A stretch of 64,000 bases of DNA, taken from Nanobdellota archaeon. Lineage in GTDB: Archaea; Nanobdellota; Nanobdellia; Parvarchaeales; Parvarchaeaceae. The DNA lies in contig JAKAPK010000001.1 of the NCBI GenBank assembly GCA_021807125.1, forward strand, positions 246,354-310,353. The letters run 5' to 3'. Below the pieces are notes generated by a model. The model saw only the letters and a list, made by a program, of their open reading frames with translations, made no database searches and was not told the DNA's origin. The translations under genes were made by a program, and so were the position numbers. This document shows, piece after piece, positions 26,526-63,755 of this stretch. Each line of letters opens with the position of its first letter. Within the stretch, counting starts at the first letter, position 1.

Positions 26526-26840
26526 ATGTCTATGAAAACTCTTGAAGATTTGATAAAGGAACTGACATCAAAAATCTCCGACGGCGTTGAGTTAAGGTGC
26601 TGTGCCGCATCAACAAGTCGATTCGCGGATGGACGGGGATATTCTACACCGATTTCCACTGTGTATAAAAAATCTGGGATCATTGACGATGCAATATCGA
26701 CTGGCGGAAATTTTCCGCATGAGATAGTTTTTAATGATGATTATTCGATAGGAAGATATCTGATTACGCATGCCGACACCGGCACAATAGACGGAACTTT
26801 ATGCCTAAATATCCCTAAAACAAGGGAGGGGTGCTTATAG
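26526..26840 (+). CDS. Hypothetical protein
   Basis: 104 aa ORF, no family recognised. Confidence 0.45.
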   Translation: MSMKTLEDLIKELTSKISDGVELRCCAASTSRFADGRGYSTPISTVYKKSGIIDDAISTGGNFPHEIVFNDDYSIGRYLITHADTGTIDGTLCLNIPKTREGCL

Positions 26841-47425: not shown

Positions 47426-50400
47426 ATGCCTAAATCACAATCTGCCTTAGAATATATGATGACTTATGGCTGGGCAATCCTGATAATAGTCCTTATAGCG
47501 GCGATACTTTTCTCCTTTGGTATATTCAATCCTTCGACCAGCGTTACAAACGCCCCTCTGATAACAGGTTTCTCCGATATTCCAGTAACTACAGCGGTGG
47601 CTAATAATAGCTTCTTCAAGATAACTCTGTCAAACCAGTATGGGCAGACAGTAAGGCTAAACAACGCAACTATGCTCTTTGGAAGCACAACGTTCACGAA
47701 AAACAACTGCACGAACATCGTGTTAACAGCTGGACAGTACGCAAGCTGCTACGTTGAAGGAACTTTCTCAGGAAGCACGATATCCGTAGTTGGGACGATA
47801 TTTTATACCATAATCGACAGCAATTTTAACACGTCTACGACAGGAACTATAAGGGTTCAGAATAGCGGCGAGCCGTTATACCCTGCAAGTGTAGCGATGT
47901 GTTCTCTTAGTTATTTACTTAATAAGACAAGTGATAATAAATCTGGAGTTAATTTAGACAATGTAAGCTGGAAGATAGCCAATGCCGGTGAATTTGCTGT
48001 AGTAATGGCTGCCAGTGGCGCTAAATTGTTCGGTGGAAGTTTTAAGATTCCTTCTGGTTGCTATTTCGCAGAACAGAAATCTGACTCATCGAATTCAAGT
48101 ATAGTCATCTGTCCTAATCAATCTCCTGGCAGTTACAGTGTGAATGTCACGAATAACGGTGATTCTGTAGCTTTAGCTGCTTACATATTCCATGGGCCTA
48201 TGTGTTACTATTCTATCAACGGCACGACAGGAGGAACTATACTAAAGTCCTCTTTGCCAGCTGGCGCCAGCCTCTATCTATGTGATGCAGCTTCAAATAC
48301 TGCCTCTGATTTTCTTAATTCTTCTGTGACGGATGTGAACGCTACAAACGCTGAAATAGGCCATCAAACGGGCAATATCTGCTATGGTATAGACCCGACT
48401 ATGCCGGTATTCGGACAAAGCTTATCGTTTATAAGTCTGAATAGTAGTTTCGCTAACGTCACGACATTCTCCGAAACCGGACTGCCTTCAAATATCAAGT
48501 GGAATGTTACTTATGACGGAACACTAAAGGGTACTAAATCGCCGGCGAATATAATATTTGTTACATTACCAGGTAACTATTCATATTCTGCAACAGCTCT
48601 GAGCAACTCTTCATCAAATTGCACCTCTGTATATACTCCTTCAGCGGCTTCAGGATATGATGTCTCTGGCACGCCAAAAAGTATAATATTTTCTACTTCC
48701 ACATCTTGCTCTACGACTTTCAGCGAGAGCGGGCTGCCCAGTGGCTCTCTGTGGAACGTTACCTATAGTTCTGTATATAATGCTTCTACCGCAGTAAACG
48801 TAACCGCAACTACTACCGTAGGTATACACAGCTTTGCGCTATACCGACAGGATGTGAACGGCTGTGTATATATACCGCTCAATTCTTCCTCACTTCAGCC
48901 CATGTTCAGCGGAAATCTGAAGGCTGGTGCTTTCCAAAAAGTGAAGTATAACCTTACTTACTGTCTTACGACCTTTGACGAATCCGGTCTTCCTTTAAGT
49001 ACTATCTGGAATGTGACATTCAATGGGACATTACAGCAGTCAACGTCAACTAAAATAATATTCAATACTACTAATAGATCACTTCCCTTTTTGACTCATA
49101 TCGCATACAGTGGCGGAACACCATACTGTCAGGCGCCGGTTTCAGGAAACTTATTTGCTGGGTCTATTATTACAGTTACTTATTCGTCTACGTGTATCAC
49201 GACTACTTTCACTGAAACAGGTTTGAAATCAGGTAAAATCTGGTCGGCGGTCTACGATAACGAATCAAATACTTCTTCTGATAGCGTTATAACGCTAAGA
49301 TCGATACCTGGAACTTTTGCATTCACGATACCAGCCCAATTTAATTCTTCTTCTGTTTGTGAGATGGCTTTACTTTCTTCAAACAGCTCCGGCAGACTGG
49401 TAGCAGGTTCCACAAAATCAGAAACATTCAATGAAACTTGTGCTATATATTCCAATGAACATATAATTGCGGGACAAAAGATAGTCTATAACTGGTCTAG
49501 TTCGGTTGTACCGGACTTGTATTATCCAACGAATGGCATTATGTATACTGAACACCCTATAAACAGCAGCTGGCGTGAGTGGTACGAAGTAAATGGCACT
49601 TATATACAATATATATCATCACCATTTAAACCCCCTGCTGAGTTTATTAGAACTTGCCCATCCGAGTGTCCGGCTGCGGGAGTAATCGGCACGGAAGGTT
49701 ACTTCTTTGACAGTAATACTGGCTATATCTACTCATCAAAGGGAGAGATATTCAATGGAAGCAGCACGTCGTTTCTAGGTTTTGATAACGGTTTTGGCCT
49801 GACAAAAATCCCGTATGATTTCAGCGTAATAAACAATTCGGGATATGTCTACTTACCGAACCCGAATGGACAAATATCCTTGATAAATAAAAAAACCCTG
49901 TTAACAAATATAACGGTAGGCAACTTCTCCAGGCTTTCTACTCCTTATTATGGCAATGGCGATCAATATGCTGGTGAACAAACAGGTTTGACTATGGATA
50001 ATGTTAATAACTATACCTATGTTATTGCCTTTCCTTTAAACAGGACGCTGGTGATTAGTGGTACTTCGGTAATCGCAAATCTGTCGATGATAAGGCCTTT
50101 GTATGACATAGTCGATACATTCCATAATTATGTATATGTAATAGATGGATTAAATGGAACCAATATAGACATATTAAGCGGTACAAGTGTCATCGGGAGC
50201 TTAACTGTAGACAAAACATTGGATGTTTGTTCACCTCCTTTCTCCGCTACTAAGAGTAGCTGTATGTATTCAGCATCAAATCCAATTTATAACCCTGGCA
50301 ATCACTTATTATATGTTGCCACTGAGGGAGGCTATACAAATATAATAAACGGCACGTTACTTGTAGGGAACGTATCCTCTCTAAACCCAAAAAATACAAC

Positions 50401-50731
50401 TATAACCGGTTTAGGATATGATGCAGCCAAAAGTTACGTTTACGTCGGAAGCAGGGGTTATAATTCCAATTCTAGTGGGACTTACTATCACGACTATATC
50501 ACAGTGATAAATGGCACCAAGGGAATAGCAAATATAACTGTAACCACGGGCGCAAAAGGCAGTGGAATACAAGCTCTTGGTCAACAGATATACGATCCCT
50601 CGAATGGGTTCATGTACATTGGTGACCCGCAGGATAACCAAACGATAATAATGAATCAAACGACGATAGTAGAACGACTCCCGTTAACACTGAGCGGTGC
50701 CACTCTTGTTGGCAAATACTACGAAGTATAA
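47426..50731 (+). CDS. Giant pilin-like-anchored surface protein with FxExGLP repeats and propeller-like C-terminus
   Basis: 1101 aa; QSALEYMMTYGWAILIIVLIAAILFSFGIFNPST; four F(S/D/T)E(S/T)GL repeats; VYVGSRGYNSN..DYITVINGTKGIANITV. Confidence 0.78.
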   Translation: MPKSQSALEYMMTYGWAILIIVLIAAILFSFGIFNPSTSVTNAPLITGFSDIPVTTAVANNSFFKITLSNQYGQTVRLNNATMLFGSTTFTKNNCTNIVLTAGQYASCYVEGTFSGSTISVVGTIFYTIIDSNFNTSTTGTIRVQNSGEPLYPASVAMCSLSYLLNKTSDNKSGVNLDNVSWKIANAGEFAVVMAASGAKLFGGSFKIPSGCYFAEQKSDSSNSSIVICPNQSPGSYSVNVTNNGDSVALAAYIFHGPMCYYSINGTTGGTILKSSLPAGASLYLCDAASNTASDFLNSSVTDVNATNAEIGHQTGNICYGIDPTMPVFGQSLSFISLNSSFANVTTFSETGLPSNIKWNVTYDGTLKGTKSPANIIFVTLPGNYSYSATALSNSSSNCTSVYTPSAASGYDVSGTPKSIIFSTSTSCSTTFSESGLPSGSLWNVTYSSVYNASTAVNVTATTTVGIHSFALYRQDVNGCVYIPLNSSSLQPMFSGNLKAGAFQKVKYNLTYCLTTFDESGLPLSTIWNVTFNGTLQQSTSTKIIFNTTNRSLPFLTHIAYSGGTPYCQAPVSGNLFAGSIITVTYSSTCITTTFTETGLKSGKIWSAVYDNESNTSSDSVITLRSIPGTFAFTIPAQFNSSSVCEMALLSSNSSGRLVAGSTKSETFNETCAIYSNEHIIAGQKIVYNWSSSVVPDLYYPTNGIMYTEHPINSSWREWYEVNGTYIQYISSPFKPPAEFIRTCPSECPAAGVIGTEGYFFDSNTGYIYSSKGEIFNGSSTSFLGFDNGFGLTKIPYDFSVINNSGYVYLPNPNGQISLINKKTLLTNITVGNFSRLSTPYYGNGDQYAGEQTGLTMDNVNNYTYVIAFPLNRTLVISGTSVIANLSMIRPLYDIVDTFHNYVYVIDGLNGTNIDILSGTSVIGSLTVDKTLDVCSPPFSATKSSCMYSASNPIYNPGNHLLYVATEGGYTNIINGTLLVGNVSSLNPKNTTITGLGYDAAKSYVYVGSRGYNSNSSGTYYHDYITVINGTKGIANITVTTGAKGSGIQALGQQIYDPSNGFMYIGDPQDNQTIIMNQTTIVERLPLTLSGATLVGKYYEV

Positions 50732-50880
50732 TTTTGCGGCATAAAAAATTTGTGAGTATCACCGCATAATAACGAAGAAAAAACGCTTGGATTTTTGTTA
50801 AATTTTGTATTTTTGTGTGTTAGTTTTTAAAAGTATGATTTATCCTACTTATCTTACTATTAAAGATTATCAGATATCCC

Positions 50881-51060
50881 CTCTTATATTTAACAATATT
50901 ATTATAATATCATATTATTAAATAATAAATAAAATATTATAATATTATTATAGATGCTTTAATTTTTTCTATTTTATATATTTTATAAATTATATTATTT
51001 TAGTAATTATATTAATATATATAAATATTAGTTTTATATTATTATTTATATTAATTAATC
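50881..51060. other. Extremely AT-rich block (11 G/C in 180 nt)
   Basis: Direct count over 50881-51060. Confidence 0.9.
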
Positions 51061-51153
51061 CATAGTGCGAAGATTTATTTACTGCAAAAAGGTAAAAGTA
51101 TTTATATAAATAACTTCTAATAATTATTATAGTGTAAAATTGGGGGTAATATT

Positions 51154-51645
51154 ATGGCATATGAAGGAACAATTCATTCGAGAGAAGTTGTAAAGTCAAA
51201 TGGCTTCCCGGTGAAGCTTTACAATTTTAAATCAGCTTTTGCAAGTGAAGCGTTTCCCGATAGACGTTCGTCAGCCCAGCATTTGCTCGAGATATTAAAC
51301 AAAGAATTAACTGAAAATTCTAGAAAACGTTATTCTCATGGCATAGCAGGAGCATGGGGCTTCAAATCTGAATCTTCTCATTCTGGAGTGGACGATCGAT
51401 ACGGCGTCAAGGCAATGGATCTTTTTTTGTATTCACGTGAACCTAACTGGAAAACAAATCCCGTAATGTTGGCTTCGGTGTACAATGATGGTTCTCTTGT
51501 TAAAACGCCTTCAGAAACAACTTGCGAGACGATGACTATAATATTGGGCGAAGAAGGAAAGCTCAGGAGAAGATGCCAAAATCTGGATGAATTCATTGGA
51601 TCATGGCCCGATATACAACCACTTGGGCCTACGAACAGCGAATAG
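51154..51645 (+). CDS. Hypothetical protein
   Basis: 163 aa with strong TATA-like aagtatttatata upstream; no family recognised. Confidence 0.55.
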   Translation: MAYEGTIHSREVVKSNGFPVKLYNFKSAFASEAFPDRRSSAQHLLEILNKELTENSRKRYSHGIAGAWGFKSESSHSGVDDRYGVKAMDLFLYSREPNWKTNPVMLASVYNDGSLVKTPSETTCETMTIILGEEGKLRRRCQNLDEFIGSWPDIQPLGPTNSE

Positions 51646-51702
51646 ATTCTCAAATAGATTGTTATAGAAACATTATTAATGCGATGACTGTTTTGCTGTC
51701 AT

Positions 51703-52680
51703 ATGATAGCACCGAAATTAAAAGCTGGAGACGGAGTAAGGATAATCGCGCCTGCAAGAAGCAGGAAACTGCCATTCATAAGCGATGATATAAAAAAAGA
51801 TGCGCTCCAAAATCTTGAGAAACTCGGCTTAAGTGTAAGTTTTGGAAAACATATAGATGAAGTAGACGAATTTTATTCTACAAGCGTAGAACACCGGCTT
51901 GAAGACCTGCACGACGCATTTGCTGACAAAAACGTTAAAGCGATATTGACCGTGATAGGCGGCTTCAATTCGAACCAGCTTCTTCAATACATAGACTACA
52001 AACTAATAAAAAAGAATCCGAAGATACTTTGCGGATATTCTGATATTACAGCGCTACAACACGCTATATATAAGGAGACTGGCCTGGTTACCTATTCCGG
52101 TCCGCATTATTTCACCTTCGGGAGACCTCCGTTTTATGATTACACTGTGGATTACTTTAAGAAATGTCTTTTTGATGATAAACCTTTCGAAATAATGCCG
52201 GCTAAACTGGTCGGTGAGCATTCCTCAAAGGAGTCCATCGAAATAGAGTACCAAAATTCCGGTTTTTGGCTATTTCAGAAAGGCACTGCGAAAGGCAAAA
52301 TACTCGGTGCGAATTTGTGCACATTAAATCTCTTACAAGGTACAGAATTCATGCCCGATATACGAAATTGCATACTCTTTGTGGAGGACGATGGCGTTAG
52401 CGACAAAGTGACATTTGACAGGGACCTGCAGTCTCTCATGCAGCTGCCAGGCGCAAAGAGTATAAAGGCCCTGGTTATAGGCCGCTTTCAGAAAGAAAGC
52501 GACATAAGTATGGATATCCTAGAAAGGATAATACGCAGCAAAAAGGAACTCAAAAAGGTACCTATAATTGCAAATGTTGACTTCGGACATACATATCCTA
52601 TGATAACTTACCCAATAGGCGGAGAAGCGAGCATAAAGATTGGAAATGAATCTGCTGAACTCAAGATAATCAAGCATTAA
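51703..52680 (+). CDS. S66 family peptidase (LD-carboxypeptidase / MccF-like)
   Basis: GDGVRIIAPARSRKL; TVIGGFNSNQLLQYIDY; LCGYSDITALQHAIYKETGLVTYSGPHYFTFG; VEDDGVS; GHTYPMITYPIGG. Confidence 0.92.
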   Translation: MIAPKLKAGDGVRIIAPARSRKLPFISDDIKKDALQNLEKLGLSVSFGKHIDEVDEFYSTSVEHRLEDLHDAFADKNVKAILTVIGGFNSNQLLQYIDYKLIKKNPKILCGYSDITALQHAIYKETGLVTYSGPHYFTFGRPPFYDYTVDYFKKCLFDDKPFEIMPAKLVGEHSSKESIEIEYQNSGFWLFQKGTAKGKILGANLCTLNLLQGTEFMPDIRNCILFVEDDGVSDKVTFDRDLQSLMQLPGAKSIKALVIGRFQKESDISMDILERIIRSKKELKKVPIIANVDFGHTYPMITYPIGGEASIKIGNESAELKIIKH

Positions 52681-52717
52681 GTCGATTATTTATACAACAT
52701 GTTTTCTATACAATATT

Positions 52718-53182
52718 ATGGGGGAAATGGAAGAAGTTGGTATAAGCAGTTTAGATGAGCTTGTCGAACTTAAAAAACAGGAAGCCGTATCAAAAGGCAT
52801 ATATGAAACCGCGTACGAAGTAGCTAAAAAATACGGTAGCTTCAGAGGAGGTCATACTTTATTATATGAAGAGCGCGAGCCGAACGGCAAATTCCTCGGT
52901 ATAATCCCTAAGACTAAACGCATATTTGCCATAGAATACGATGAAGTGAGAGACCTTTACTGCGGCATTTATAGCAGGCATATGAAAATATACGAAGGAA
53001 ATAATTTGATCTTTAAAGCGGATGCAGAAGACTTTGAAGGACTGGCCCGAGTTTGGGGGTGGAGTGACCCAAAAATAGAACGTTATATATCTTCTGAAGG
53101 CTGGGAAAAGCACCTCAAAGACCTACTTTTTAATGGGCCTAAACCGTTGCAGGAAAGAGTCCGCGAGAACTTTAATCTGTAA
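52718..53182 (+). CDS. Hypothetical protein
   Basis: 154 aa, no family recognised. Confidence 0.5.
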   Translation: MGEMEEVGISSLDELVELKKQEAVSKGIYETAYEVAKKYGSFRGGHTLLYEEREPNGKFLGIIPKTKRIFAIEYDEVRDLYCGIYSRHMKIYEGNNLIFKADAEDFEGLARVWGWSDPKIERYISSEGWEKHLKDLLFNGPKPLQERVRENFNL

Positions 53183-53264
53183 TTTCCGTCTTTTGGGAAA
53201 ATCTCACGCTTAATTTCAAATGTTTCCTTAAAGCTTTAAATCTTTTTAGTGTTTACACATCAAT

Positions 53265-53561
53265 ATGAATCGAAATATAAGCATGGAATATTCGGAAATA
53301 GCGGAAAGTTTTTCCAAGTATTTAAGTGCTGAAATGGGGAAAAAAATAGATGCGATAATTATCTATGGATCGGTTGCCAGAAAACAAGCGAAAAAGGCAA
53401 GTGATATAGACCTTATGATCGTTACCAAATACGCAAATAGCCCGGGCTTTATAAGGAAATTATATCACATAAAAGGCACATTTGAGCAGCTTGGGGATTT
53501 CAAGTTCCTAATATCACTATTTGTCATAACGCCGGAGACGTTAAAAAAGGAAAAAAAATGA
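53265..53561 (+). pseudogene. MNT-type nucleotidyltransferase domain, apparently frameshifted at an A8 run
   Basis: IIYGSVARKQAKKASDIDLMIV (GSxAR..xSDIDLxV); shifted frame after the A-run continues MNTPFIANVKSDAVRLYGKKVI*. Confidence 0.65.
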
Positions 53562-53606
53562 ATACCCCGTTTATAGCGAATGTAAAAAGCGATGCTGTAA
53601 GGCTGT

Positions 53607-53726
53607 ATGGAAAAAAGGTCATCTAAAGGCTTGCTTGAGAGTTATTTGAATCTCGCGGATAAGACTCTCGGCTACGATTATGAGAAAAACAATAAACACA
53701 AAAATATAAAATATCTAAAGAGATAA
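53607..53726 (+). pseudogene. Short HEPN-like N-terminal fragment
   Basis: MEKRSSKGLLESYLNLADKTLGYDYEKNNKHKNIKYLKR*, directly following the MNT frame. Confidence 0.35.
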
Positions 53727-54017
53727 GATAGCTAGATTAGTTCGCGAAAGATCGGTTTTCTCAATAAAAAGACACTCAATTCTCCTTTTAGGATAATAGA
53801 TATGCACTTTATTCCTCTCCAAAACAAGTACCCCTATAAAAGGTATCCTCGACACTTGATGTGGATCAAAGGCCCACTTTACCCTATTTTAGGCCATTTT
53901 CTAACCTACAAAGGTATCCGATAGGTGCCTTTATGGGTACTGTGGTATCTATTTTGTACGGTTTCAGATACTATTGTAAAAGGTACCAAAAGAGCTAAAA
54001 AGCACCAAAATCAGACT

Positions 54018-54497
54018 TTATGCTATAAACCAATGCATAAATGGTGCCCCTTTATCGAAAGCAGCACCCAGCTTCTTATAAAATTTTATCGCCGATTTAT
54101 TCTTATCCCAAACACAAAAGTAGACCGCAAAGCCCCCTTTCTTTTTACATATGTCCGCAGCTCGCTTCATTAATAATTTACCTACGCCTTGGCCGCGCGC
54201 ATATGAGCTAACAAACAAATCGACTACATGTATTACCGGTCCCAACATCTCATCCGGATCGTATCCAAAATGATAACAGAGATATCCGACAGGAACACCG
54301 CCTTTTTTTGCTATCAACGTATAGAACAGGCGCTTCTTACCAAAGCCGTAACGCATGAAGGCTTTTTGCCGCTTTTGGGCATAGTTTTTACGTTTCTTGG
54401 TAGTAAGACTCTGCAGGTATGCATCAAATTCTTTCTGAAGTCTAAACACATCTATTGCATCGGATTTCCTGGCAGGCACGATTTCGATTTTGACCAT
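54018..54497 (-). CDS. GNAT family N-acetyltransferase
   Basis: VDLFVSSYARGQGVGKLLMKRAADICKKKGGFAVYFCVWDKNKSAIKFYKKLGA. Confidence 0.9.
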   Translation of the reverse strand: MVKIEIVPARKSDAIDVFRLQKEFDAYLQSLTTKKRKNYAQKRQKAFMRYGFGKKRLFYTLIAKKGGVPVGYLCYHFGYDPDEMLGPVIHVVDLFVSSYARGQGVGKLLMKRAADICKKKGGFAVYFCVWDKNKSAIKFYKKLGAAFDKGAPFMHWFIA

Positions 54498-54638
54498 ATG
54501 ATAACTTACTGTAAACGAATTATATAAATATTAAAATTGATTCGAGCGGAATTAGAGGGGGGTAAAATTGCCATTTTGATGCTTTTTGACGGTAAATTAA
54601 GTCTCAACTATGCTTTTTAGCTGTGCTATGTCCTTGAT

Positions 54639-55097
54639 CTATACTTCTTTATGAGGACATTCTTCAAATGCTTTTTTGCACGCCTTACAATTGTCCTGAT
54701 TGCGATTATGTAAAGTTTCTCTTATTACCCTTGCTTTAGTAGGGGCGAATAAAAGATACTCAACGTAGTGTTTTACGCCGTCGTACCCACGACTTTTAGC
54801 TAAACTATTAAGAACATCGTCTCCTTTCATGTCTGCAGCAGCGAGTTCTGGGTCTTTTTCTTCTAACAAATCCAGAATTTTCACGCGTCTTAAACGTATT
54901 GTGTAAGTTACAGGTAAACTATGACGATTACGACGTTCTTCGGCGTGCGTATGAGCATATAGCCCGGCTTCATGCTTGCAATCGGTAAGATAAAGCCCAT
55001 AGCCAAACCTGCCATTGCTTTCGTGCAACACATCCATCAGACTCGAAACACCCCTGTAAAGCGTAAGGTCTTTGATTTTTCCCATAGTTTTGATCAT
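54639..55097 (-). CDS. ADP-ribosyltransferase-fold-like protein with C-terminal Cys cluster
   Basis: LTLYRGVS; GYGLYLTDCKHEAGLYAH; YTIRLRRVKILDL; SRGYDGVKHYVEYLLFAPTKARVI; CKACKKAFEECPHK. Confidence 0.6.
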   Translation of the reverse strand: MIKTMGKIKDLTLYRGVSSLMDVLHESNGRFGYGLYLTDCKHEAGLYAHTHAEERRNRHSLPVTYTIRLRRVKILDLLEEKDPELAAADMKGDDVLNSLAKSRGYDGVKHYVEYLLFAPTKARVIRETLHNRNQDNCKACKKAFEECPHKEV

Positions 55098-55172
55098 TAA
55101 CGGTTTAAGTTATAATTTTAATGTAAGATTCGAAGAGATATATAAGCATTAAACGCCCTTTTTGACTGGAAG

Positions 55173-55808
55173 CTAAGGAGTGCACATTGACCTCGGACCG
55201 TACATCGGGACACCAAGGACCATCTCTCTCTTACCGCCAAGGTTTCTATATATATCCCACCATCCATGTCCGTGGGCCGCTTCTAGATCGTTTCGATACC
55301 CGTGTATTATCCTATCCAGCTTGTGGGCTTCTTCGTGTATTATGGTCTGTTTTAATCCCGTACGGCCTTGTGAATACGGCGTACCTATCAGGGCATCCCT
55401 GATCACTAACACTAAATTTATCCTTATTTCCCCGGTTACTTGATTATAGTCTGCTTCTTTGTCTCTCGACAACAAGGCGATATGATAACTATGTGGTTCG
55501 GGAAGGATCAATGATTTCGGAAGCTTTAAACTTTCAATATAATTTCTATATTTTGGGTTATTCGTGTAAGAATCTCTGACTTCCCAGATTCTTTCAGCAA
55601 GCCGACTTTCCAGCATTTCGAGTGTTATTTTACCTTTCAATGGAGCCAAGCCCATCCAATTTACAAGGGCCCTCTCAAGGTCGGATTTTGTGACGTCTGA
55701 GTAAGGCGCTTGCTCACCCCGATACGTCCAATTGTAATGATCCGGTACTTTTATTCTACTCAGGTCTAAAATACCTTCTATTGGTCTTTTTTTCATAGTT
55801 TTGATCAT
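55173..55808 (-). CDS. Zincin-like metallopeptidase (HExxH; SprT/WLM-like)
   Basis: LKQTIIHEEAHKLDRIIHGYRNDLEAAHGHGWWDIYRNLGG. Confidence 0.65.
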   Translation of the reverse strand: MIKTMKKRPIEGILDLSRIKVPDHYNWTYRGEQAPYSDVTKSDLERALVNWMGLAPLKGKITLEMLESRLAERIWEVRDSYTNNPKYRNYIESLKLPKSLILPEPHSYHIALLSRDKEADYNQVTGEIRINLVLVIRDALIGTPYSQGRTGLKQTIIHEEAHKLDRIIHGYRNDLEAAHGHGWWDIYRNLGGKREMVLGVPMYGPRSMCTP

Positions 55809-55836
55809 TAACCAATAATATTAAGTTAATTTAGAT

Positions 55837-56322
55837 TTAAGGACGTATATATGGATTCCAATACTCTGAGTTGCTTAATACTCTTACTTTCGGTTTCAGC
55901 ATCATCCGTTCGATTGCGTCATTTGCAGCGTCAAAATCATCATGCGTGTACGATATTATGCCGAACGCGTTCTTCAGCACCAGTTTCTGGTCATTTTCGT
56001 TGTATCGTCCTATACCTAGATAAGCTATCTGCGCCTTATATCTTGCAGGATGATGGACCTTTCCGTCGGCATGCATCAGTTCGTGAAGCAGGGAACGGTC
56101 GATAACACGCCACGAGGCTTCTTCTACAGGTAATCTTGTTTTCTGTGTGTATTGATATAACGGAAGATGCATTAGCCTGTTCACATAAATGGATATGCTG
56201 CCGCCCGGAAGCATCATTGCCGTGATACTATCGTCCGCAGTACCCTCATAAGATCTTGATGTGTAATTTACCCGTGCCGGTGGTTTGATCTTTAGAATTC
56301 CTTCTATAAATCGCTTTATCAT
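55837..56322 (-). CDS. Zincin-like metallopeptidase (HExxH), paralog of 55173..55808
   Basis: SLLHELMHADGKVHHPARYKAQIAYLG; N-terminus MIKRFIEGILKI comparable to MIKTMKKRPIEGILDL. Confidence 0.65.
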   Translation of the reverse strand: MIKRFIEGILKIKPPARVNYTSRSYEGTADDSITAMMLPGGSISIYVNRLMHLPLYQYTQKTRLPVEEASWRVIDRSLLHELMHADGKVHHPARYKAQIAYLGIGRYNENDQKLVLKNAFGIISYTHDDFDAANDAIERMMLKPKVRVLSNSEYWNPYIRP

Positions 56323-56996
56323 GTTTTTACCGCCGGAACGTATTTTGTGCGACTCTGCTTCATGTAGCTTAAGCCTAAATCAACGCCTAAAATTATTGTT
56401 GCAGCACCGATCAGACCTTCAACCACATTCGATACTGGAGCACTATAGAGAATATCATTAACGACAGGCAAGAAGGATTGTGCTCCTATATATAGCCCGC
56501 CTGCCAGAAGTCCCAACGATGCTGCAGCTTTAGCATATAGGCTGCCGGAAGTCGATTTGTAACCGCTTGGAAATTTCGTACTTTCATGGATATAAGATCT
56601 TGCAGCAATTGTTCCTACGCCTAACAAAGCAGCCGCTGTCAATATTCCCAATGTATTGTTAGGCCCTCCGGAAATGCCTGTAGAAACGAAGAAAGAAGAT
56701 ATTCTATGGAACAGAGGATTTGAATAAATCTGACAGAAGATTCCGCACTGTCCCGGCGCTGCGGAAACGGATGTTGGCGTGCTGACCGCTCCGACGTCGT
56801 TTAACCTATCTAAAGTATCGACTTCTGTTAGACCTGTTCCTGAACTTAAGCCGAGTACGGCCAATAGGTGCTTTGGTTTGATAACGCGAATATTGCTCTT
56901 GTGATTCGTCAGACTGTCTTCTAAGGTGTTTTTTGCCATCTTAAGCGGTATAAGAGAATATATTATATAAGTACTTTTGTTGCTGATAACTTGCAT
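56319..56996 (-). CDS. Multi-TM membrane protein
   Basis: Several hydrophobic segments; overlaps 55837..56322 start by 4 nt (translational coupling). Confidence 0.55.
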   Translation of the reverse strand: MQVISNKSTYIIYSLIPLKMAKNTLEDSLTNHKSNIRVIKPKHLLAVLGLSSGTGLTEVDTLDRLNDVGAVSTPTSVSAAPGQCGIFCQIYSNPLFHRISSFFVSTGISGGPNNTLGILTAAALLGVGTIAARSYIHESTKFPSGYKSTSGSLYAKAAASLGLLAGGLYIGAQSFLPVVNDILYSAPVSNVVEGLIGAATIILGVDLGLSYMKQSRTKYVPAVKT

Positions 56997-57053
56997 TAAA
57001 TCCTCTGGATAATAAAATATGAGCGGAAAATTTTTTCATGATTATAAACTGCC

Positions 57054-57506
57054 TCATGAACTATTCCCCGAAAAGCGCCTGCAGGTATCAGAAAACCCCT
57101 CTGGGTCCTCGCACACGGCACATCTGTATCCCTTACCATGGACCTGTCTTTCCACTATCCTGGCGTTATCCGTATCGAAAAGAAGATAAGTAGTGCCGAA
57201 ACGGTTTTCGCCCTTGACCACGTTGCAGTCTTTTGATCTTGCCAATTTCTCATAATCATTGTCTTCCACGGACTCATGCAAGCTATCGAGATCCAGTACT
57301 CTTGCATTCTCTATTCTTATCGTATAAGTAACAGGAGACTCTTTATTTCTCATAGAATGCCCGTGCGCGTAAATGTCCGCTTCATGCTTGAAATTAGTTA
57401 GATAGAGCCCTCTGTTCCAGCAGCCGTTCGTCTTTTTTAAGGCGCTCTCCAATCTGGAAACTCCCCTATAAAGCGTGATTTCTTTTTTCTCGATACTTTC
57501 ACCCAT
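57054..57506 (-). CDS. ADP-ribosyltransferase-fold-like protein, paralog of 54639..55097
   Basis: ITLYRGVSRLESAL; NRGLYLTNFKHEADIYAHGHS; VTYTIRIENARVLDL; TTYLLFDTDNARIV; CAVCEDPEGFSDTC. Confidence 0.55.
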   Translation of the reverse strand: MGESIEKKEITLYRGVSRLESALKKTNGCWNRGLYLTNFKHEADIYAHGHSMRNKESPVTYTIRIENARVLDLDSLHESVEDNDYEKLARSKDCNVVKGENRFGTTYLLFDTDNARIVERQVHGKGYRCAVCEDPEGFSDTCRRFSGNSS

Positions 57507-57697
57507 TTAATTATAATAGAAATCATTGAATAAATGGTTCACTACTTTTGTAAAGTCAATTTACTGCATTATCTATTGCATTTAATATGTTATTATATCA
57601 GTTTATTTGATATATTTATATATTAAAGTTATTAATATATTATCATACTATGCGCATATGACTTAAAGCTTATAAAGTCTAATTAAGCGTTTCATAT

Positions 57698-57717
57698 TTA
57701 TCCTACTAGTAGGATAA
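57698..57717. repeat. 20-bp perfect palindrome TTATCCTACTAGTAGGATAA
   Basis: Read directly; half-site TTATCCTACT also at 50840-50849. Confidence 0.9.
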
Positions 57718-57934
57718 GTAAGATTATATTATTACTGTTTACAAAAACGGAAAACTGCTTAATTCGGACGGAAATAAAGCGTTCACGATTACAACCAGTG
57801 AGAAATAATTTTGTCACAAACTGCATGTTGATTAGAATCAACGCACTCGACTTTATTATAATAAAGCGACCTTTTTAGTGATTCAAGATACTATTTCATG
57901 CTATCGATTACTATTACAAGTTATACTATATAGA

Positions 57935-58252
57935 TTAGAAACTGTCAAAATCGTCAGAAAAGTACTCGCTATTGATTCTTTGCATTCTGTATTTGGAGTA
58001 TGTTGAAACACCGAGGTCCTTATCGAGCATTAATTCCGCTAATTGTTTACCATTTATTAAAATTAGATGTAAGTTTGGCTGACTGGCTGCTGATTCCAAA
58101 GCTTCTTTTGTGAAATCAGAGGTCGTTATAAAAATACCTTTACTGCCTTTTTGATTTACAGCACCAGCAAACTTTTGTATGTCTGGTCTACTAATTGTAT
58201 TTTCCCATCGTTTTGCTTGTATATAAATTTTATCTAAGCCGAGGGTATCCAC
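57935..58252 (-). pseudogene. Mrr-type restriction endonuclease, N-terminally truncated
   Basis: LGLDKIYIQAKRWENTISRPDIQKFAGAVNQKGSKGIFITTSDFTKEAL (QxKR of Mrr catalytic domain); N-terminal domain missing. Confidence 0.7.
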
Positions 58253-58494
58253 ATATCTGAATCCAGATCAGACCAGCCAAAACATTCTGTAAGTAGATAT
58301 TCCGGTTTATACTTTTTTAACAGTTCTAGTTCGTAAGCTTTGTCCTCCAAACTTGTATGCGCCTCCCCGACTAGGATTATGTCATATTTACTAAGATCTT
58401 CGGTTAGTAATGGGTCTTTAGGTAGTTTTCCACACTTTTGGATATCAAAAACTAAAGATTCTAAATTATTAGCAGCTCCATCTTCTTTTACCAT
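58234..58494 (-). pseudogene. Truncated TraB/ChaN-like fragment abutting mrr
   Basis: IILVGEAHTSLEDKAYELELLKKYKPEYLLTECFG then abrupt end at the mrr junction. Confidence 0.5.
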
Positions 58495-58746
58495 ATATCA
58501 CTATAGAGTAGTAGTAATATATAAAGTTTTCAATACTTTAACTTTGGTTTACAAAGTCGACTTCTTGTTTATAAAGTCGCAGTTTTGTTTATATTCGATG
58601 GGCGTGATGGCACAAGTAACAGTGCTATATGTTGTAATTGGTGTTATCTAATACTTACCATTACAAATTTAATAAAAAGCCAAGTTATTTAAGTAGTACT
58701 ATACGGATAAAAAATTTATATACTAGATTCAATCTAATAAAAAACT

Positions 58747-59610
58747 ATGGAAAATGCGATTTCGGCACCGGTCTTTGATGAGATGGGGGAAGCGATTTCT
58801 GTTCTTTCAGAAACTGAAAAGGATGAGACTACGCGCGCGGTCAGGATAGCCCTAAATATGGTCGATAGAAACGAATTAAAAGAGATGTTTGACGACCCGG
58901 AAACTAAGAAAAAAATTGCAGATGACGTTAGCCAGAATATTCGTGAAAGTGGTCTTTTAGAGCTGCTTTATGACGAAACGCCAGACGATCAGATTGACGT
59001 AAGCACTATCACTGGGCAGATTTTAAACGCTACATTTGAAACGGCTTATAAGACTACATCTTACCTCATAGGTTCAAACCAAATAAAACCATACATAAGT
59101 AGATTAAGGGGCTATCTGGATAAGATACTAGTGTACGCGCGTGAAGAATTCAAGGATATTGATGACCTGCACAGCGGTGCTGTTCTTAAACACTTTCAAA
59201 AAGGATTCGACAGTATTATTGCGCTTATTCCGGAAAATCAACCATACCTGGTGTTACAGGACAAGATAGTAGATGAACTTGCACTTAGCGCAAAAAAGAG
59301 TGGCCTTGGAAGTGCTATTACACAACAGAATATAGACGCTGCCATAAGAAAGACAATCCCGACAAAGGCAGATTATACGAATTTTTACCAGGATTCTTAT
59401 AGGGAAATTAAGTTGATCGGACACACTATGATAAATAAACTTGGCGAGATCATTGCCAACGTTTTAAGGGATGTGACAGACGATGAGTCAGAGAGTGAAA
59501 TTTCCCCCATACAGTCCATGATGAATTCTATGTATACCGCAACAGAGAACGCATTTGAAAAAGTGATATTCTCAAAAAAAGAGAATGACGCAAAAAGAAT
59601 TTATGGCTAG
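58747..59610 (+). CDS. Hypothetical acidic alpha-helical protein
   Basis: 287 aa; TATA-like upstream; no family recognised. Confidence 0.6.
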   Translation: MENAISAPVFDEMGEAISVLSETEKDETTRAVRIALNMVDRNELKEMFDDPETKKKIADDVSQNIRESGLLELLYDETPDDQIDVSTITGQILNATFETAYKTTSYLIGSNQIKPYISRLRGYLDKILVYAREEFKDIDDLHSGAVLKHFQKGFDSIIALIPENQPYLVLQDKIVDELALSAKKSGLGSAITQQNIDAAIRKTIPTKADYTNFYQDSYREIKLIGHTMINKLGEIIANVLRDVTDDESESEISPIQSMMNSMYTATENAFEKVIFSKKENDAKRIYG

Positions 59611-59670
59611 CTTATAAAATTATACACAAATTATTAATTACCATATAATCTTGAGAGGTATAATGTCACT

Positions 59671-59811
59671 ATGACCGCTATCACAGTTACTGCTACCGGA
59701 TGGATGGTTGATATGGGCCTTATAAAAATAAATGACATATGGCTTTCTGAGGCTCCGCAAGGTGTTATATACAACGAACAGAAAGGTATGCGAGCTACTC
59801 TAATATACTAA
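59671..59811 (+). CDS. Small hypothetical protein (46 aa)
   Basis: MTAITVTATGWMVDMGLIKINDIWLSEAPQGVIYNEQKGMRATLIY*; not in ORF track. Confidence 0.25.
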   Translation: MTAITVTATGWMVDMGLIKINDIWLSEAPQGVIYNEQKGMRATLIY

Positions 59812-59856
59812 ACCTAGCTTACGAAGAACCTTGGCATGTGTCTGCTTGCAAAATTA

Positions 59857-61548
59857 TTAGCTTGCTGTTATCTGTGTCTGGGCATGCGCCCCTGCCATAC
59901 CGATTACGGATATGCCATAAACATTACCCGAGATAGGGACTGCGAACGGCGGCGAGATGACAATGTTGGACGGTGCTCCCGTAGGTGACGTGGGTGAAGG
60001 GCCCATAACAAGCAATCCGTTTAGAGTGAACGTGACCGATGAATTCGCCGCTAAAGTATAACCCTTAGGTATCTGTGCTGACGATGGCGGCTGTGAACTG
60101 ATATTTGAGACCTCAAACTCGGAAGCGGGGCCGGATGCGGCCTGCTGTGTCATTGACACCGGCGGGAATCCTATGGTGCCATTGGGAAATATCATGAAAA
60201 ACGTCGGCGCATTCCTGAGCTGCGTTAACACCGTCTGTGGGACAGAAGGCATTTTTGGCGGCGTCATACTGGAAGGAAAACTGATGTACATGGTGGTTCC
60301 TATGGGAAGCGTTATAACCGTAGAGTTTTGCGGGATCGTGATATTGCCGGGAACCTGATGCCCGTTTTGATCCGTATAGGAAGGACCCATGTTCTGATTT
60401 AGAGTGCTCGGAGGAACGGAATCTTCCACTACTACGTTTTCACCGCTCATGTTGATTACCGCACCGGTCGAATTAAGGGATATCGCGTATGCTGGCTTGA
60501 TGAGATCTATGATGTAAATCTTCATCTGCTGTTGAGGAGGAGTGTAATTACTGCTGTTAGGAGGAGGCTGCATGGGGAAGCTGTCCGTAGTATTCATGAC
60601 CGTTCCGTTGGGGAAAGTCACTGTGAATTCCGGCGTTACTGCGCTTGCGTTGGCTGGCATTATGCTGCGTGGTACTGCTGGGAAAGGAAATATTATCGAT
60701 GGCATTTTGAAAAGCAGGGATGCGGGCGGAAGAGGGAAAAACACTTCTTTGCTCCCGTTAAGCATTAAACCGTTCAACTGGACGCTTGAATTCCCCGTAT
60801 TTCTCACCGTCACGCTAAGGCTGGTATCGTTTCCACTAGTTGATAACGACGCGGATGTTATGCTAATGGTAGGGGTGACTGCCCTGAATACCTGGGACAA
60901 ATTGGTTCCAGACGTGAAATTTTGTATCTGGCCTGGAGGAGGTTGTATACCATTTGCTCCCGGAGCCCTTGCGAACATTCCTGGTGGAGGCATTACGCCC
61001 CTTACGTTCGGAGTGAGTACATATATTGTTTTGTCTATCGTTTCTATGACCGTTATTGCCGGTATCAGGTCCAATACAGCGTGCTTCTGCCCAAAAACAG
61101 TATTATTAGTGGTGAGGTTGACGACTAGCGTGCCTTCTCCTATAACCACCGTATAGTTTTTGCCGCCTATAGTTATCACGGCGTTTGAAATATTGACTTT
61201 TACCTGTGTCACCTTTGAGCCGTTCGGCACGTTTGCCGTGGCGAGTATTATAGAAGCGTTTCGCAGATTCAATACATTAACAGTCCCGCTGCCGGGTAAA
61301 GATTGTGTACTTGTCTGGCCGTTATTTGACACTTGTATCTGCATTGCCGAGAAAGTAACGAAAAGAGCCGTAGTCCCCGCCGGCACCGTAGCCGGGTCCG
61401 TAAGACTTAGAAGAAGGTTTTTCTCCGCGGCTGCCTGGCTGCCTGTCTGGGTCGCTGTAGAGAATACTCCACTGACGAGAACGTAACCGACGACCGCCAC
61501 TATGGCTATCGCGACAATTGTAATAAACAGGTATCCCTGGAAACCCAT
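59857..61548 (-). CDS. Anchored DUF4382-like secreted protein, Pro/Asn-rich
   Basis: N-terminal TM; LLLSLTDPATVPAGTTALFVTFSAMQIQVSNNG; paralog of 17810..19066. Confidence 0.6.
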   Translation of the reverse strand: MGFQGYLFITIVAIAIVAVVGYVLVSGVFSTATQTGSQAAAEKNLLLSLTDPATVPAGTTALFVTFSAMQIQVSNNGQTSTQSLPGSGTVNVLNLRNASIILATANVPNGSKVTQVKVNISNAVITIGGKNYTVVIGEGTLVVNLTTNNTVFGQKHAVLDLIPAITVIETIDKTIYVLTPNVRGVMPPPGMFARAPGANGIQPPPGQIQNFTSGTNLSQVFRAVTPTISITSASLSTSGNDTSLSVTVRNTGNSSVQLNGLMLNGSKEVFFPLPPASLLFKMPSIIFPFPAVPRSIMPANASAVTPEFTVTFPNGTVMNTTDSFPMQPPPNSSNYTPPQQQMKIYIIDLIKPAYAISLNSTGAVINMSGENVVVEDSVPPSTLNQNMGPSYTDQNGHQVPGNITIPQNSTVITLPIGTTMYISFPSSMTPPKMPSVPQTVLTQLRNAPTFFMIFPNGTIGFPPVSMTQQAASGPASEFEVSNISSQPPSSAQIPKGYTLAANSSVTFTLNGLLVMGPSPTSPTGAPSNIVISPPFAVPISGNVYGISVIGMAGAHAQTQITAS

Positions 61549-61669
61549 AATAAATAATAAAATATTGTTCTATATATATCTTCTTTAGTGTATTTGGGTT
61601 ACACCGACGGTGATTAAGCTTATGCCTTTCACAAAATCCTGTCTTGACGGGGATATTAATAATTAAGCG

Positions 61670-62668
61670 GTGACTTTGCCGCTAAACACATTGCATAATG
61701 GCAACAAAAGTTCGGAAAACATATTTATAGCTGCACCCCCCTATATGGGTTTAACGATTATGGCACTCAAAGGACTAGATTTGAACGGCCTTCTTTCTAG
61801 AGCCCCAGAACCGACGCGGGATTGCGTCAAGGCGCTTTATAGTGGCTGCAAAAACCCGTCGTCTGTCAAATACGAGCCGTTCAACAAAGGCGAGCTCCTC
61901 AAGAAATATTCCGATCTTCCAGCATTGCGCGAACCTGTGCCGGGTGACATGGTATACGATGAGAGCTCGGACAGCGATTATGGTTACAATCTGAAGGGCT
62001 ACAGCATCCGTATCCCTGCACCCAAAGATATAACCGAATTTTTAGAAAGATTCCGTGCATATGCGGATGGAGTCCACGGCATGAAGCGAGTCTTCTCTGC
62101 AGTGGAATTCACCGAGCTGAACGTACCGCAAATAGGCACGGGAATGTCGAAAGCCAGACATGTGTTTGATAAGCAGAGATTTAGTGATGCTGTGAGCGTA
62201 CTATTCGATGGAAAAACTTTTGATCTTGCGGATTTCATGGCCGGCAACATCGGCGCTATATGCTTCAGCAGCGCACTGTCGCTCTACGTTCTGATAAAGA
62301 ACGACGAAGAGTTGTCGCGTGGTGCGTTCAAGCCTTATCTCGGCACGGGAATATACGGAGACGAAGAAGGGGGCCTCCACGCCTGGGTAAATTTGCACGT
62401 AAATCCCTCTGGAAGGGACGGGAATTTTAAATACGAAGATTACGTACTAGATTCGGCCTTAAACATGGTCGGAGTTTACGAAAACTCCATAAGGACAGCC
62501 TGTCCGGGTGACCCGACGTCGGTAGTCAGGATAGATAACGATTGCATACCGCGATGGTCCGAACTTTACTCCTATAAAGAGCTTGAAAACTGGCACGAAT
62601 ATAATAATGGAAGTCGAAAGATTGTCCTTAGGACCGGTATACTCAGGCCGAAGTCCGCATGTTTGTAA
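61670..62668 (+). CDS. Transglutaminase-like cysteine-peptidase-fold protein
   Basis: Possible Cys-His-Asp triad: GNIGAICFSSALSLYVLI / GGLHAWVNLHV / EDYVLDSALN; true start may be ATG 61745 or 61760. Confidence 0.5.
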   Translation: MTLPLNTLHNGNKSSENIFIAAPPYMGLTIMALKGLDLNGLLSRAPEPTRDCVKALYSGCKNPSSVKYEPFNKGELLKKYSDLPALREPVPGDMVYDESSDSDYGYNLKGYSIRIPAPKDITEFLERFRAYADGVHGMKRVFSAVEFTELNVPQIGTGMSKARHVFDKQRFSDAVSVLFDGKTFDLADFMAGNIGAICFSSALSLYVLIKNDEELSRGAFKPYLGTGIYGDEEGGLHAWVNLHVNPSGRDGNFKYEDYVLDSALNMVGVYENSIRTACPGDPTSVVRIDNDCIPRWSELYSYKELENWHEYNNGSRKIVLRTGILRPKSACL

Positions 62669-62736
62669 GCTACTAATATTGATTCTTATCCCTTTGGATT
62701 AAACGTTAGTCCGTACTCGATGACAACACCGCGTTT

Positions 62737-62955
62737 TCAATCGTGTTTTATCTTCATTAAATCGAAAAGCCAGTTTCTTTTTATTAAAAAATACCACCCT
62801 GCTCCTAAATAAACCAGGGCTAAGATACCTGCGTCGTTTGCTCCTACGACATACCCTAAAAATAAAACTATCGAAAAAAATCCGACAACAAAATACAAGA
62901 CTACTATTGAAAGCAAAAGTGTCTTTTGGCGGGAAGTAGGTTTTTCGGTAATCAT
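62737..62955 (-). CDS. Small membrane protein
   Basis: 72 aa, two to three TM segments. Confidence 0.45.
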   Translation of the reverse strand: MITEKPTSRQKTLLLSIVVLYFVVGFFSIVLFLGYVVGANDAGILALVYLGAGWYFLIKRNWLFDLMKIKHD

Positions 62956-63024
62956 ATCAATAAATTTAGTACGTTGTTCGTTAAATAACCGCCCCTGCGC
63001 ATTTTTCAGTATATGCCGTAAAAA

Positions 63025-63612
63025 CTAGCCGAGCCACTTTATCAGCTCATTGGTTGGGATGACATCGAAAAGCTTCGCCATATTTATAAGCGAACGTTGG
63101 TGGGCTTCTTTGTCCATACTGGACGAAGAATCGGACGCGACCACTGTGTAGAATCCGTGGTTTATAGCGTCACGGGCACTGGATTCTACGCCTACCTCGG
63201 TTGCTATGCCCGCTATTATCAGTGTTTCTATACCGGCATTTCTGGCCATAAGTTCGAAATTCGTCCCAACGAATACGCTTGCCGTATTTTTGTTGAGCAC
63301 AATCTCATTTTCCTTGGGCGTTATCTCCAACTCGAACGCCTCCTTAGGCAGCTGTGAAAGATTATACTTCATCTTGGAGGAAGAGTATTTTCTCGCCGGT
63401 GATTCGAACTCGTGCGGCAAAGGTGTTATCTTTGTGAAGAATATCGGCATATTTTTCTCGCGCGCCTTTGCTATCAATTTATTCATATTAGACAGAAATT
63501 CTTCCCTGTTGTAAACTCTCTCCACCAGCATCTTCTGCACGTCCCATACTATAAGTGCACTGTGCTCCGGGTTTACTATTTCATTTATATTTTCATATGC
63601 TTTTCTTACCAT
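63025..63612 (-). CDS. Isochorismatase/nicotinamidase-family cysteine hydrolase
   Basis: HSALIVWDVQKMLVERV; NKNTASVFVGTNFELMARNAGIETLIIAGIATEVGVESSARDAINHGFYTVVASDS. Confidence 0.9.
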   Translation of the reverse strand: MVRKAYENINEIVNPEHSALIVWDVQKMLVERVYNREEFLSNMNKLIAKAREKNMPIFFTKITPLPHEFESPARKYSSSKMKYNLSQLPKEAFELEITPKENEIVLNKNTASVFVGTNFELMARNAGIETLIIAGIATEVGVESSARDAINHGFYTVVASDSSSSMDKEAHQRSLINMAKLFDVIPTNELIKWLG

Positions 63613-63755
63613 TTCATGTTATAGCACTAACGGGTTATAAATTGTAAGTCAGAACATACGATTCATGTCCGTATTTGTCATATGTGTACAAAATATTTAT
63701 ATTTACTATAACATAGTAGTTAAAGATTTATATACTAATACGAATTATAAGTGAG

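What the first reader, a model, noticed from the sequence alone, without database searches (positions are those of the whole stretch)
54639..57506. Undescribed-looking cluster: ART-like / zincin / zincin / multi-TM / ART-like, all on one strand
Five consecutive minus-strand genes: ART-like (57054-57506), multi-TM (56319-56996), HELMH zincin (55837-56322, overlapping its neighbour by 4 nt), HEEAH zincin (55173-55808), ART-like (54639-55097). The outer proteins share LYRGVS...GLYLT..KHEA..YAH...VTYTIR...(V/I)LDL, which resembles the ADP-ribosyltransferase fold used by many toxins and effectors; the two inner peptidases are paralogs of each other. Duplicated ART + protease + membrane protein in a host-dependent archaeon suggests an effector, interspecies-conflict or host-interaction system, or a mobile-element cargo. 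I do not recognise this combination as a named system. Function is inference.
Basis: partly seen in the sequence, partly recalled or inferred. Interest (0 to 1): 0.82.

Follow-up and report, generated by a model that had tools for sequence, protein, structure and literature searches.

The report
Archaeal ADP-ribosyltransferase and metalloprotease gene cluster
A tiny, probably host-dependent archaeon carries a strain-specific patch of genes for two toxin-like enzymes of the ADP-ribosyltransferase kind (one apparently inactivated) and two unrelated metalloproteases; the five-gene set is unique to this genome, but an enzyme-plus-protease pair of the same sort recurs in close relatives, which points to a small conflict-type module rather than a conserved five-gene machine.

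Summary
The five minus-strand ORFs are real at the stated coordinates. The outer pair are remote ADP-ribosyltransferase (ART) homologues of the DUF3990 / ART-PolyVal type, linked through relatives found here. ART1 keeps a plausible triad (R15-Y36-E113). ART2 has Thr in place of the acid and is probably inactive. The HEEAH protein is SprT-like. The HELMH protein belongs to an unrelated zincin-like family. They are not paralogues: they share only about 34 N-terminal residues. The five-gene set occurs in no other genome searched and sits in a strain-variable region beside degraded Mrr and ChaN remnants. However, a zincin gene followed 10 bp later by an ART gene occurs in two other species of the genus, and a third keeps the zincin alone; both genes are under purifying selection. 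I read this as a lineage-restricted ART+zincin conflict module, here expanded with accessory genes and possibly with an enzyme/pseudo-enzyme ART pair. Target and delivery are unknown. A side result may be newer: a short N-terminal 'SLDELL'-like peptide, carried by several zincins and membrane proteins of these families, is about 3-fold enriched at N-termini across this genus (16/360) but not in other families (3/453).

The parts
57054..57506 (-). ART2: ART-like protein, 150 aa; YRG (13-15) and GLYLT (33-37) kept, acid position is T106; probable pseudo-enzyme; C-terminal CxxC...C
   Evidence: 43% identical to ART1; motif positions; DUF3990/ART link only through relatives
56319..56936 (-).
   Evidence: Homologues in G007, G014, G011 at 41-51% identity; start supported by homologues and TATA at -34/-33; about 3 hydrophobic segments
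55837..56322 (-). Zincin-like protein 2, 161 aa, HELMH at 80-84; overlaps the TM gene by 4 nt
   Evidence: Related to a HELTH protein in G023 (E 7.8e-5; z = 14.9); no Pfam or PDB family
55173..55808 (-). Zincin 1, SprT-like, 211 aa, HEEAH at 158-162 followed by H...W...LGG
   Evidence: SprT-like in 6 of 9 family members, best E 1.8e-5; HEEAH, H179, W183, G191, G192 invariant; seven genomes of the genus
54639..55097 (-). ART1: ART-like protein, 152 aa; R15, Y36, E113; SRGYDGV..EYLLFAP motif; C-terminal CxxC...C
   Evidence: DUF3990 E 0.012; z = 10 with the G017 ART; motif positions
55076..55101 (-). 26-bp 5' end of ART1, 92% identical to the 5' end of zincin 1 (55787-55812), containing TTAATGATCAAAACTATG
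   Evidence: Direct repeat D9; exact 18-mer at these two sites only among the sequences held at that time
54018..54497 (-). GNAT acetyltransferase with its own leaderless promoter; neighbour, probably not part of the module
   Evidence: Pfam Acetyltransf_1 1.7e-18; TATA at -31; relatives elsewhere in the genus
57935..58252 (-). Remnant: C-terminal part of an Mrr-type restriction endonuclease gene
   Evidence: Mrr_cat 4.6e-21, matching only profile positions 43-115; PADLOC mREase_IV positions 216-315 of 317
58234..58494 (-). Remnant: N-terminal part of a ChaN/Tiki-type gene that is longer (242 aa) in G021
   Evidence: Cofac_haem_bdg 5.5e-5; 78% DNA identity to G021 stops at 58243
58691..58691 (.). 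Boundary: same-species assembly G013 is 99.2% identical from here to 63754 and carries unrelated sequence to the left
   Evidence: BLASTN, gene content

Best explanation
This is a strain-specific accessory island built around a small, lineage-restricted ART+zincin conflict module. Inferred working: ART1 transfers ADP-ribose from NAD+ to a macromolecule using R15/Y36/E113. ART2, a diverged copy without the catalytic acid, is a non-catalytic partner (decoy, regulator or immunity copy). A zincin encoded beside the ART acts as its companion, either cleaving a second target or processing/removing the ART. The TM protein and zincin 2 form a separate two-gene unit in the same hotspot. Shown here: gene content, remote ART and SprT homology, recurrence of a zincin-ART pair under purifying selection, loss of the acid in ART2, and strain variability. 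Inferred: enzymatic activity, the pseudo-enzyme role, any functional coupling of ART and protease, the target, and whether the module acts inside the cell (against mobile elements or as a toxin-antitoxin-like unit) or on another cell. I favour action inside the producing cell because no signal peptide or secretion gene was seen beside it.
For: ART link: the relatives' hits to DUF3990 (4.5e-7) and ART-PolyVal (1.8e-6) and z-scores of 10 and 7 to G017 for the two window copies. DUF3990 belongs to the Pfam ART clan (PMC7955679). Recurrence: zincin + ART 10 bp apart in G017 and G028, at the same site upstream of the proteasome gene; G029 keeps the zincin without the ART. dN/dS is about 0.11 for both genes between G017 and G028 (0.147/1.34 and 0.080/0.735). 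HExxH genes are 3 of 219 in a random genus sample, so a zincin beside a given ART has a chance near 2.7%, and two among the three genes between the window ARTs about 0.06%. Strain variability. Acid loss in ART2. ART and zincin-like metallopeptidase domains are recurrent partners in phage and plasmid polyvalent proteins (PMC5512222).
Against: ART1 itself scores far below Pfam cut-offs, and no confident structure was obtained. Its triad R-Y-E is not the H-Y-D of polyvalent ARTs. The zincin of the G017/G028 pair shows no detectable homology to the window zincin 1 (E = 0.35), so the association may reflect similar hotspots rather than a fixed partnership. G003 has an ART-like gene with no zincin beside it. 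The genes have at least partly separate promoters. No target, immunity gene or expression data exist.
Confidence: 0.45

Rival explanations
1. Accidental collection: a hotspot where unrelated accessory genes (ARTs, zincins, TM protein, GNAT, NTase, Mrr and ChaN remnants) pile up, with no functional link among the five genes.
For: The five-gene set occurs nowhere else. Each gene has its own, differently placed relatives. Degraded Mrr and ChaN pieces abut. Promoters are partly separate.
Against: A zincin-ART pair recurs at another locus under purifying selection, and zincin density around ARTs exceeds the background.
Confidence: 0.35
2. Host- or competitor-directed effectors: the ARTs and zincins are delivered into a host or rival archaeon, the TM protein helps export, and the shared N-terminal peptide is the targeting tag.
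For: DPANN lifestyle (record titles; Parvarchaeales reported host-dependent, PMC10134863). ART plus protease is a classic effector repertoire (general knowledge). Zincins and TM-family proteins carry an N-terminal LxxLL-like peptide that is enriched in this genus.
Against: No clear hydrophobic signal on ART or zincin ORFs; no recognisable secretion genes among the neighbours scanned; the ARTs lack the peptide; TM homologues lack ART or zincin neighbours.
Confidence: 0.1
3. Cargo of a mobile element or provirus, i.e. split-up polyvalent-type early proteins, rather than a resident module.
For: Strain-variable region; HYD2-type ARTs and zincins are phage and conjugative-element themes (PMC5512222); ARTs weakly match phage family phrog_4700.
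Against: No integrase, capsid or replication gene among the Pfam-scanned neighbours. ART scans of viral contigs found no relative; phage and plasmid tblastn gave nothing below E = 0.08. In G017/G028 the pair sits among housekeeping genes at a fixed site.
Confidence: 0.1

Closest known systems
ART-PolyVal / Tox-ART-HYD2 (PF18760) ARTs of polyvalent proteins and polymorphic toxins
   Same: YxG...GxYx[TA]...GYDG..[acid][YI][VL][VL]F layout; the G017/G028 relatives have H-Y-D exactly as described; frequent company of zincin-like peptidases
   Different: Window ARTs are stand-alone 150-aa proteins with R instead of H and E (ART1) or T (ART2) instead of D; archaeal; below the Pfam cut-off
DUF3990 (PF13151), Pfam ART clan
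   Same: Best Pfam match of ART1 and of the G017 ART over the first half of the domain
   Different: E = 0.012 for ART1 and 4.5e-7 for G017, all below the cut-off; second half of the domain not matched
SprT-like / Spartan metalloproteases (PF10263)
   Same: HExxH plus downstream H and W in zincin 1; 6 of 9 family members match, best E 1.8e-5
   Different: Below the cut-off in the window protein (16.1 vs 25.6 bits); no DNA-binding part tested; N-terminal extension shared with zincin 2
Toxin-antitoxin systems with ART toxins (e.g. DarTG, ParST/RES)
   Same: Small ART gene next to another small gene, sporadic distribution
   Different: No macrodomain or HTH antitoxin found among the neighbours scanned; the partner is a putative protease

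Membership tests
ADP-ribosyltransferase superfamily | Detectable homology to ART family profiles | tested here: inconclusive
   ART1 DUF3990 E 0.012, ART2 none; relatives 4.5e-7 to 1.8e-6; window ARTs to G017/G028 relatives z = 5-10
ADP-ribosyltransferase superfamily | ART fold (split beta-sheet, NAD cleft) | tested here: inconclusive
   AlphaFold2 with two sequences gave pLDDT 35, no usable model
ADP-ribosyltransferase superfamily | Three active-site positions, H-Y-[EDQ] or R-[ST]-E | tested here: inconclusive
   ART1 R-Y-E (mixed), ART2 R-Y-T (acid lost), G017/G028 H-Y-D, G003 H-Y-Q
ART-PolyVal / Tox-ART-HYD2 | H-Y-D triad | tested here: not met
   Neither window protein has it; G017 and G028 do
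ART-PolyVal / Tox-ART-HYD2 | Part of a large multidomain protein of a phage or conjugative element | tested here: not met
   150-152 aa stand-alone proteins; no viral or plasmid relatives at the sensitivity used
SprT-like metalloproteases (zincin 1) | HExxH and third zinc-ligand His in a SprT-like profile | tested here: met
   HEEAH and H179 invariant in nine members; 6 of 9 match PF10263 at E up to 0.1, best 1.8e-5
SprT-like metalloproteases (zincin 1) | Protease activity on DNA-bound proteins | not testable with these tools
   Needs a biochemical assay
Zincin superfamily (zincin 2) | HExxH plus third ligand and zincin fold | tested here: inconclusive
   HELMH conserved as HELTH in G023, with GK..HP after it; no Pfam or PDB match
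Toxin-antitoxin module | Toxin toxic alone and neutralised by the partner | not testable with these tools
   Needs expression experiments
Conserved five-gene system | Same gene set in other genomes | tested here: not met

The most novel reading that the evidence does not exclude
This archaeal genus uses a short N-terminal 'SLDELL'-type peptide as a sorting or docking tag on a large, mostly orphan set of accessory proteins, and the zincins and TM-family proteins of this kind of island are tagged clients. Neighbouring unrelated genes (zincin 1/zincin 2 here; TM protein/nucleotidyltransferase in G014) would acquire the tag by exchanging 5' ends. The ART+zincin module would then be part of an undescribed targeting or delivery system in a DPANN archaeon.
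Probability: 0.15. Interest if true: 0.8.

Novelty: new variant of a known kind. Interest (0 to 1): 0.5.

Why it matters
My full-text search for ADP-ribosyltransferase together with DPANN, archaea and toxin returned no paper, and episymbiotic archaea have few candidate molecular weapons. A recurrent ART+zincin pair in an uncultivated archaeal genus gives concrete candidates to test, and the loss of the catalytic acid in one of two neighbouring ARTs offers a testable enzyme/pseudo-enzyme pair. If the N-terminal peptide is a real tag, it would allow the accessory (possibly secreted) proteome of these archaea to be listed by sequence alone.

Tried and rejected
Paralogy of the two inner zincins: rejected beyond the N-terminal ~34 aa. 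Five-gene cluster as a conserved unit: rejected at the depth searched. Viral origin by similarity: ART and TM scans of viral contigs found nothing; phage and plasmid tblastn gave only E >= 0.08; the zincin-1 profile could not be scanned. Genome-wide scan of GTDB contigs with the ART pair found no relative; with the TM family only the three genus members already known. AlphaFold2 for ART1 (pLDDT 35) and the TM protein (pLDDT 41): unusable, so no fold search was run. PDB sequence searches gave nothing significant. DUF3990 search over 364 phylum genomes: besides the window and G017 only sub-threshold hits at E 8e-4 or worse, many with stops or in another part of the profile.

Full report
Setting. 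The window is contig C7:246354-310353 of a 653-kb, 79%-complete assembly. The record titles of related genomes are 'Nanoarchaeota archaeon' MAGs. The literature describes that order as host-dependent (PMC10134863).

Check of the observation. The five ORFs exist at the stated coordinates, on one strand, with a 4-nt overlap between the TM and HELMH ORFs. The TM protein should be shortened: homologues begin at the equivalent of M21, and in this genus TATA-like boxes peak 27-32 nt before start codons (140 upstream regions), as expected for leaderless transcripts. The TM gene has such a box at -34/-33 from M21 and the GNAT gene at -31. Zincin 2 has none, which fits its overlap with the TM gene. ART1 and zincin 1 have boxes only at -48 and -43, and ART2 has none by this pattern. 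So TM+zincin 2 look like one unit, and the five genes need not be one transcript.

The outer pair. ART1 and ART2 are 43% identical (dN/dS about 0.4 with dS near saturation). ART1 alone touches DUF3990 at E = 0.012 and ART2 hits nothing. A two-sequence profile found a weak match in G017, a 192-aa protein that hits DUF3990 at 4.5e-7 and ART-PolyVal at 3.9e-6. Iterating brought in G028 (ART-PolyVal 1.8e-6) and G003 from another genus of the family (1.2e-4). Local alignment against shuffles gives z = 10.1 for ART1-G017, 7.0 for ART2-G017 and 9.5 for G017-G003. DUF3990 is listed in the Pfam ART clan (PMC7955679). Three sites line up: Y[RH]G; GxYx[TA]; and a residue just before [YI][VL][LV]F, preceded by GYDG in ART1, G017 and G028. 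The residues are R-Y-E in ART1, R-Y-T in ART2, H-Y-D in G017 and G028, and H-Y-Q in G003. H-Y-D is the triad described for polyvalent-protein ARTs (PMC5512222). ART1 is therefore plausibly active with an unusual first residue, and ART2 is probably not. No structure model was good enough to check this.

The inner pair. Zincin 1 has relatives in six other genomes of the genus plus a second copy in its own genome. HEEAH, a downstream H and W, and GG are invariant, and six of nine members match SprT-like. In G008, G005 and G004 a relative lies near a phosphoglycerate-mutase-like gene (identified by eye from sequence), so this family is partly resident. Zincin 2 matches a HELTH protein of G023. The catalytic parts of zincin 1 and zincin 2 are not detectably related (z = 0.43), but the first ~34 residues (..KRxIEGIL..IK.P...N.T.R) are (z = 8.8). 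Zincin 1 also shares 26 bp around its start codon with ART1.

The membrane protein. Relatives at 41-51% identity exist in G007, G014 and G011. They stand in what looks like a restriction-modification island (G007: DNA methylase genes and a Vsr-like gene, identified by eye from sequence), near nucleotidyltransferase genes (G014), and near another small membrane protein (G011), without ART or zincin neighbours.

Strain variability. The same-species assembly G013 is 99.2% identical from 58691 to 63754 and carries different genes to the left. Nothing of 50000-58700 is found in it, although its 66% completeness limits that negative. Between the cluster and the boundary lie the C-terminal part of an Mrr endonuclease and the N-terminal part of a ChaN-like gene, joined near 58250, which looks like a deletion scar.

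What recurs. In G017 and G028 a 290-aa HEIGHY zincin gene is followed 10 bp later by the ART gene, upstream of the same proteasome gene; in G029 the zincin is there without the ART. Between G017 and G028, dN/dS is about 0.11 for both, so the pair is maintained. This zincin shows no detectable homology to zincin 1. HExxH genes are about 1.4% of genes in a random sample of the genus, so finding a zincin beside an ART independently in both lineages is unlikely by chance (about 2.7% for one flank pair, 0.06% for two of the three genes between the window ARTs). These figures are after the fact and rest on few events. ARTs of this type were not found elsewhere in 334-382 sampled genomes of the phylum, except for weak hits I could not support.

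Mechanism. I commit to an ART+zincin conflict module acting inside the producing cell, with ART1 as the enzyme, ART2 as a non-catalytic partner and the zincin as companion protease (about 0.45). The main rival is an accidental accessory-gene hotspot (0.35). Delivery to a host or rival, and a role as mobile-element cargo, are each about 0.1.

A side result. While comparing N-termini I noticed a recurring [STNKRG][LI][DE]x[LIVF][LIVF] peptide. Defined on the biased set, it was then tested on two random samples of the genus and matched controls from other families of the class. It occurs in 9/219 and 7/220 N-termini of the genus against 1.2-1.3% of internal windows (p = 0.005 and 0.03), and in 2/235 and 1/253 controls with no enrichment. 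Pooled, 16/360 versus 3/453, p = 4e-4. Most bearers have no Pfam family: 26 bearers plus three others gave 17 families in all, mostly overlapping hits to about eight proteins, versus 129 families for 60 non-bearers. The zincins of the G017/G028/G029 locus and some TM relatives fit the strict pattern; the window zincins (IEGIL) fit only the looser one; the window ARTs do not. In G014 the TM gene and the next, unrelated gene share about 30 N-terminal residues nearly identical in DNA. I do not know what the peptide does.

Verdict. Real genes, partly correct reading: not a conserved five-gene system, but a plausible new stand-alone, archaeal form of a known ART/zincin theme.

Noticed in passing
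genus-wide; e.g. window 52718-53182 (SSLDELV), window 26526-26840 (TLEDLI), L093:190-1065 (SLDDII), L060:8616-9272 (SLDNFL): A short N-terminal 'SLDELL'-like peptide is enriched in this genus (16/360 ORF families) and not in other families of the class (3/453); mostly on proteins without a Pfam family.
   Followed up: partly
L061:8736-9356 and 9353-9988 (G014): Two adjacent unrelated genes (membrane protein, nucleotidyltransferase) share about 30 N-terminal residues almost identical at DNA level, like a recent 5'-end duplication.
   Followed up: partly
window 55076-55101 and 55787-55812: 26-bp repeat (92%) covering the start codons of ART1 and zincin 1.
   Followed up: partly
window 57935-58494: ChaN-like gene 5' part joined to an Mrr endonuclease 3' part; looks like a deletion scar.
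   Followed up: partly
window 53265-53561: Nucleotidyltransferase (MNT-like) ORF; its 75%-identical counterpart in G017 (L027) is followed by a 135-aa ORF that could be a HEPN partner, missing or broken in the window.
   Followed up: no
window 61670-62668: 332-aa protein with no Pfam family; by eye a C...HAW...D pattern like transglutaminase/papain-type enzymes.
   Followed up: no
window 58747-59610: Very acidic 287-aa protein found only in this species among 28 genus genomes, with a 35% identical second copy on contig C6 of the same genome.
   Followed up: no
140 upstream regions, genus-wide: TATA-like boxes peak 27-32 nt upstream of start codons, so leaderless transcription seems the rule; useful for correcting gene starts.
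   Followed up: partly
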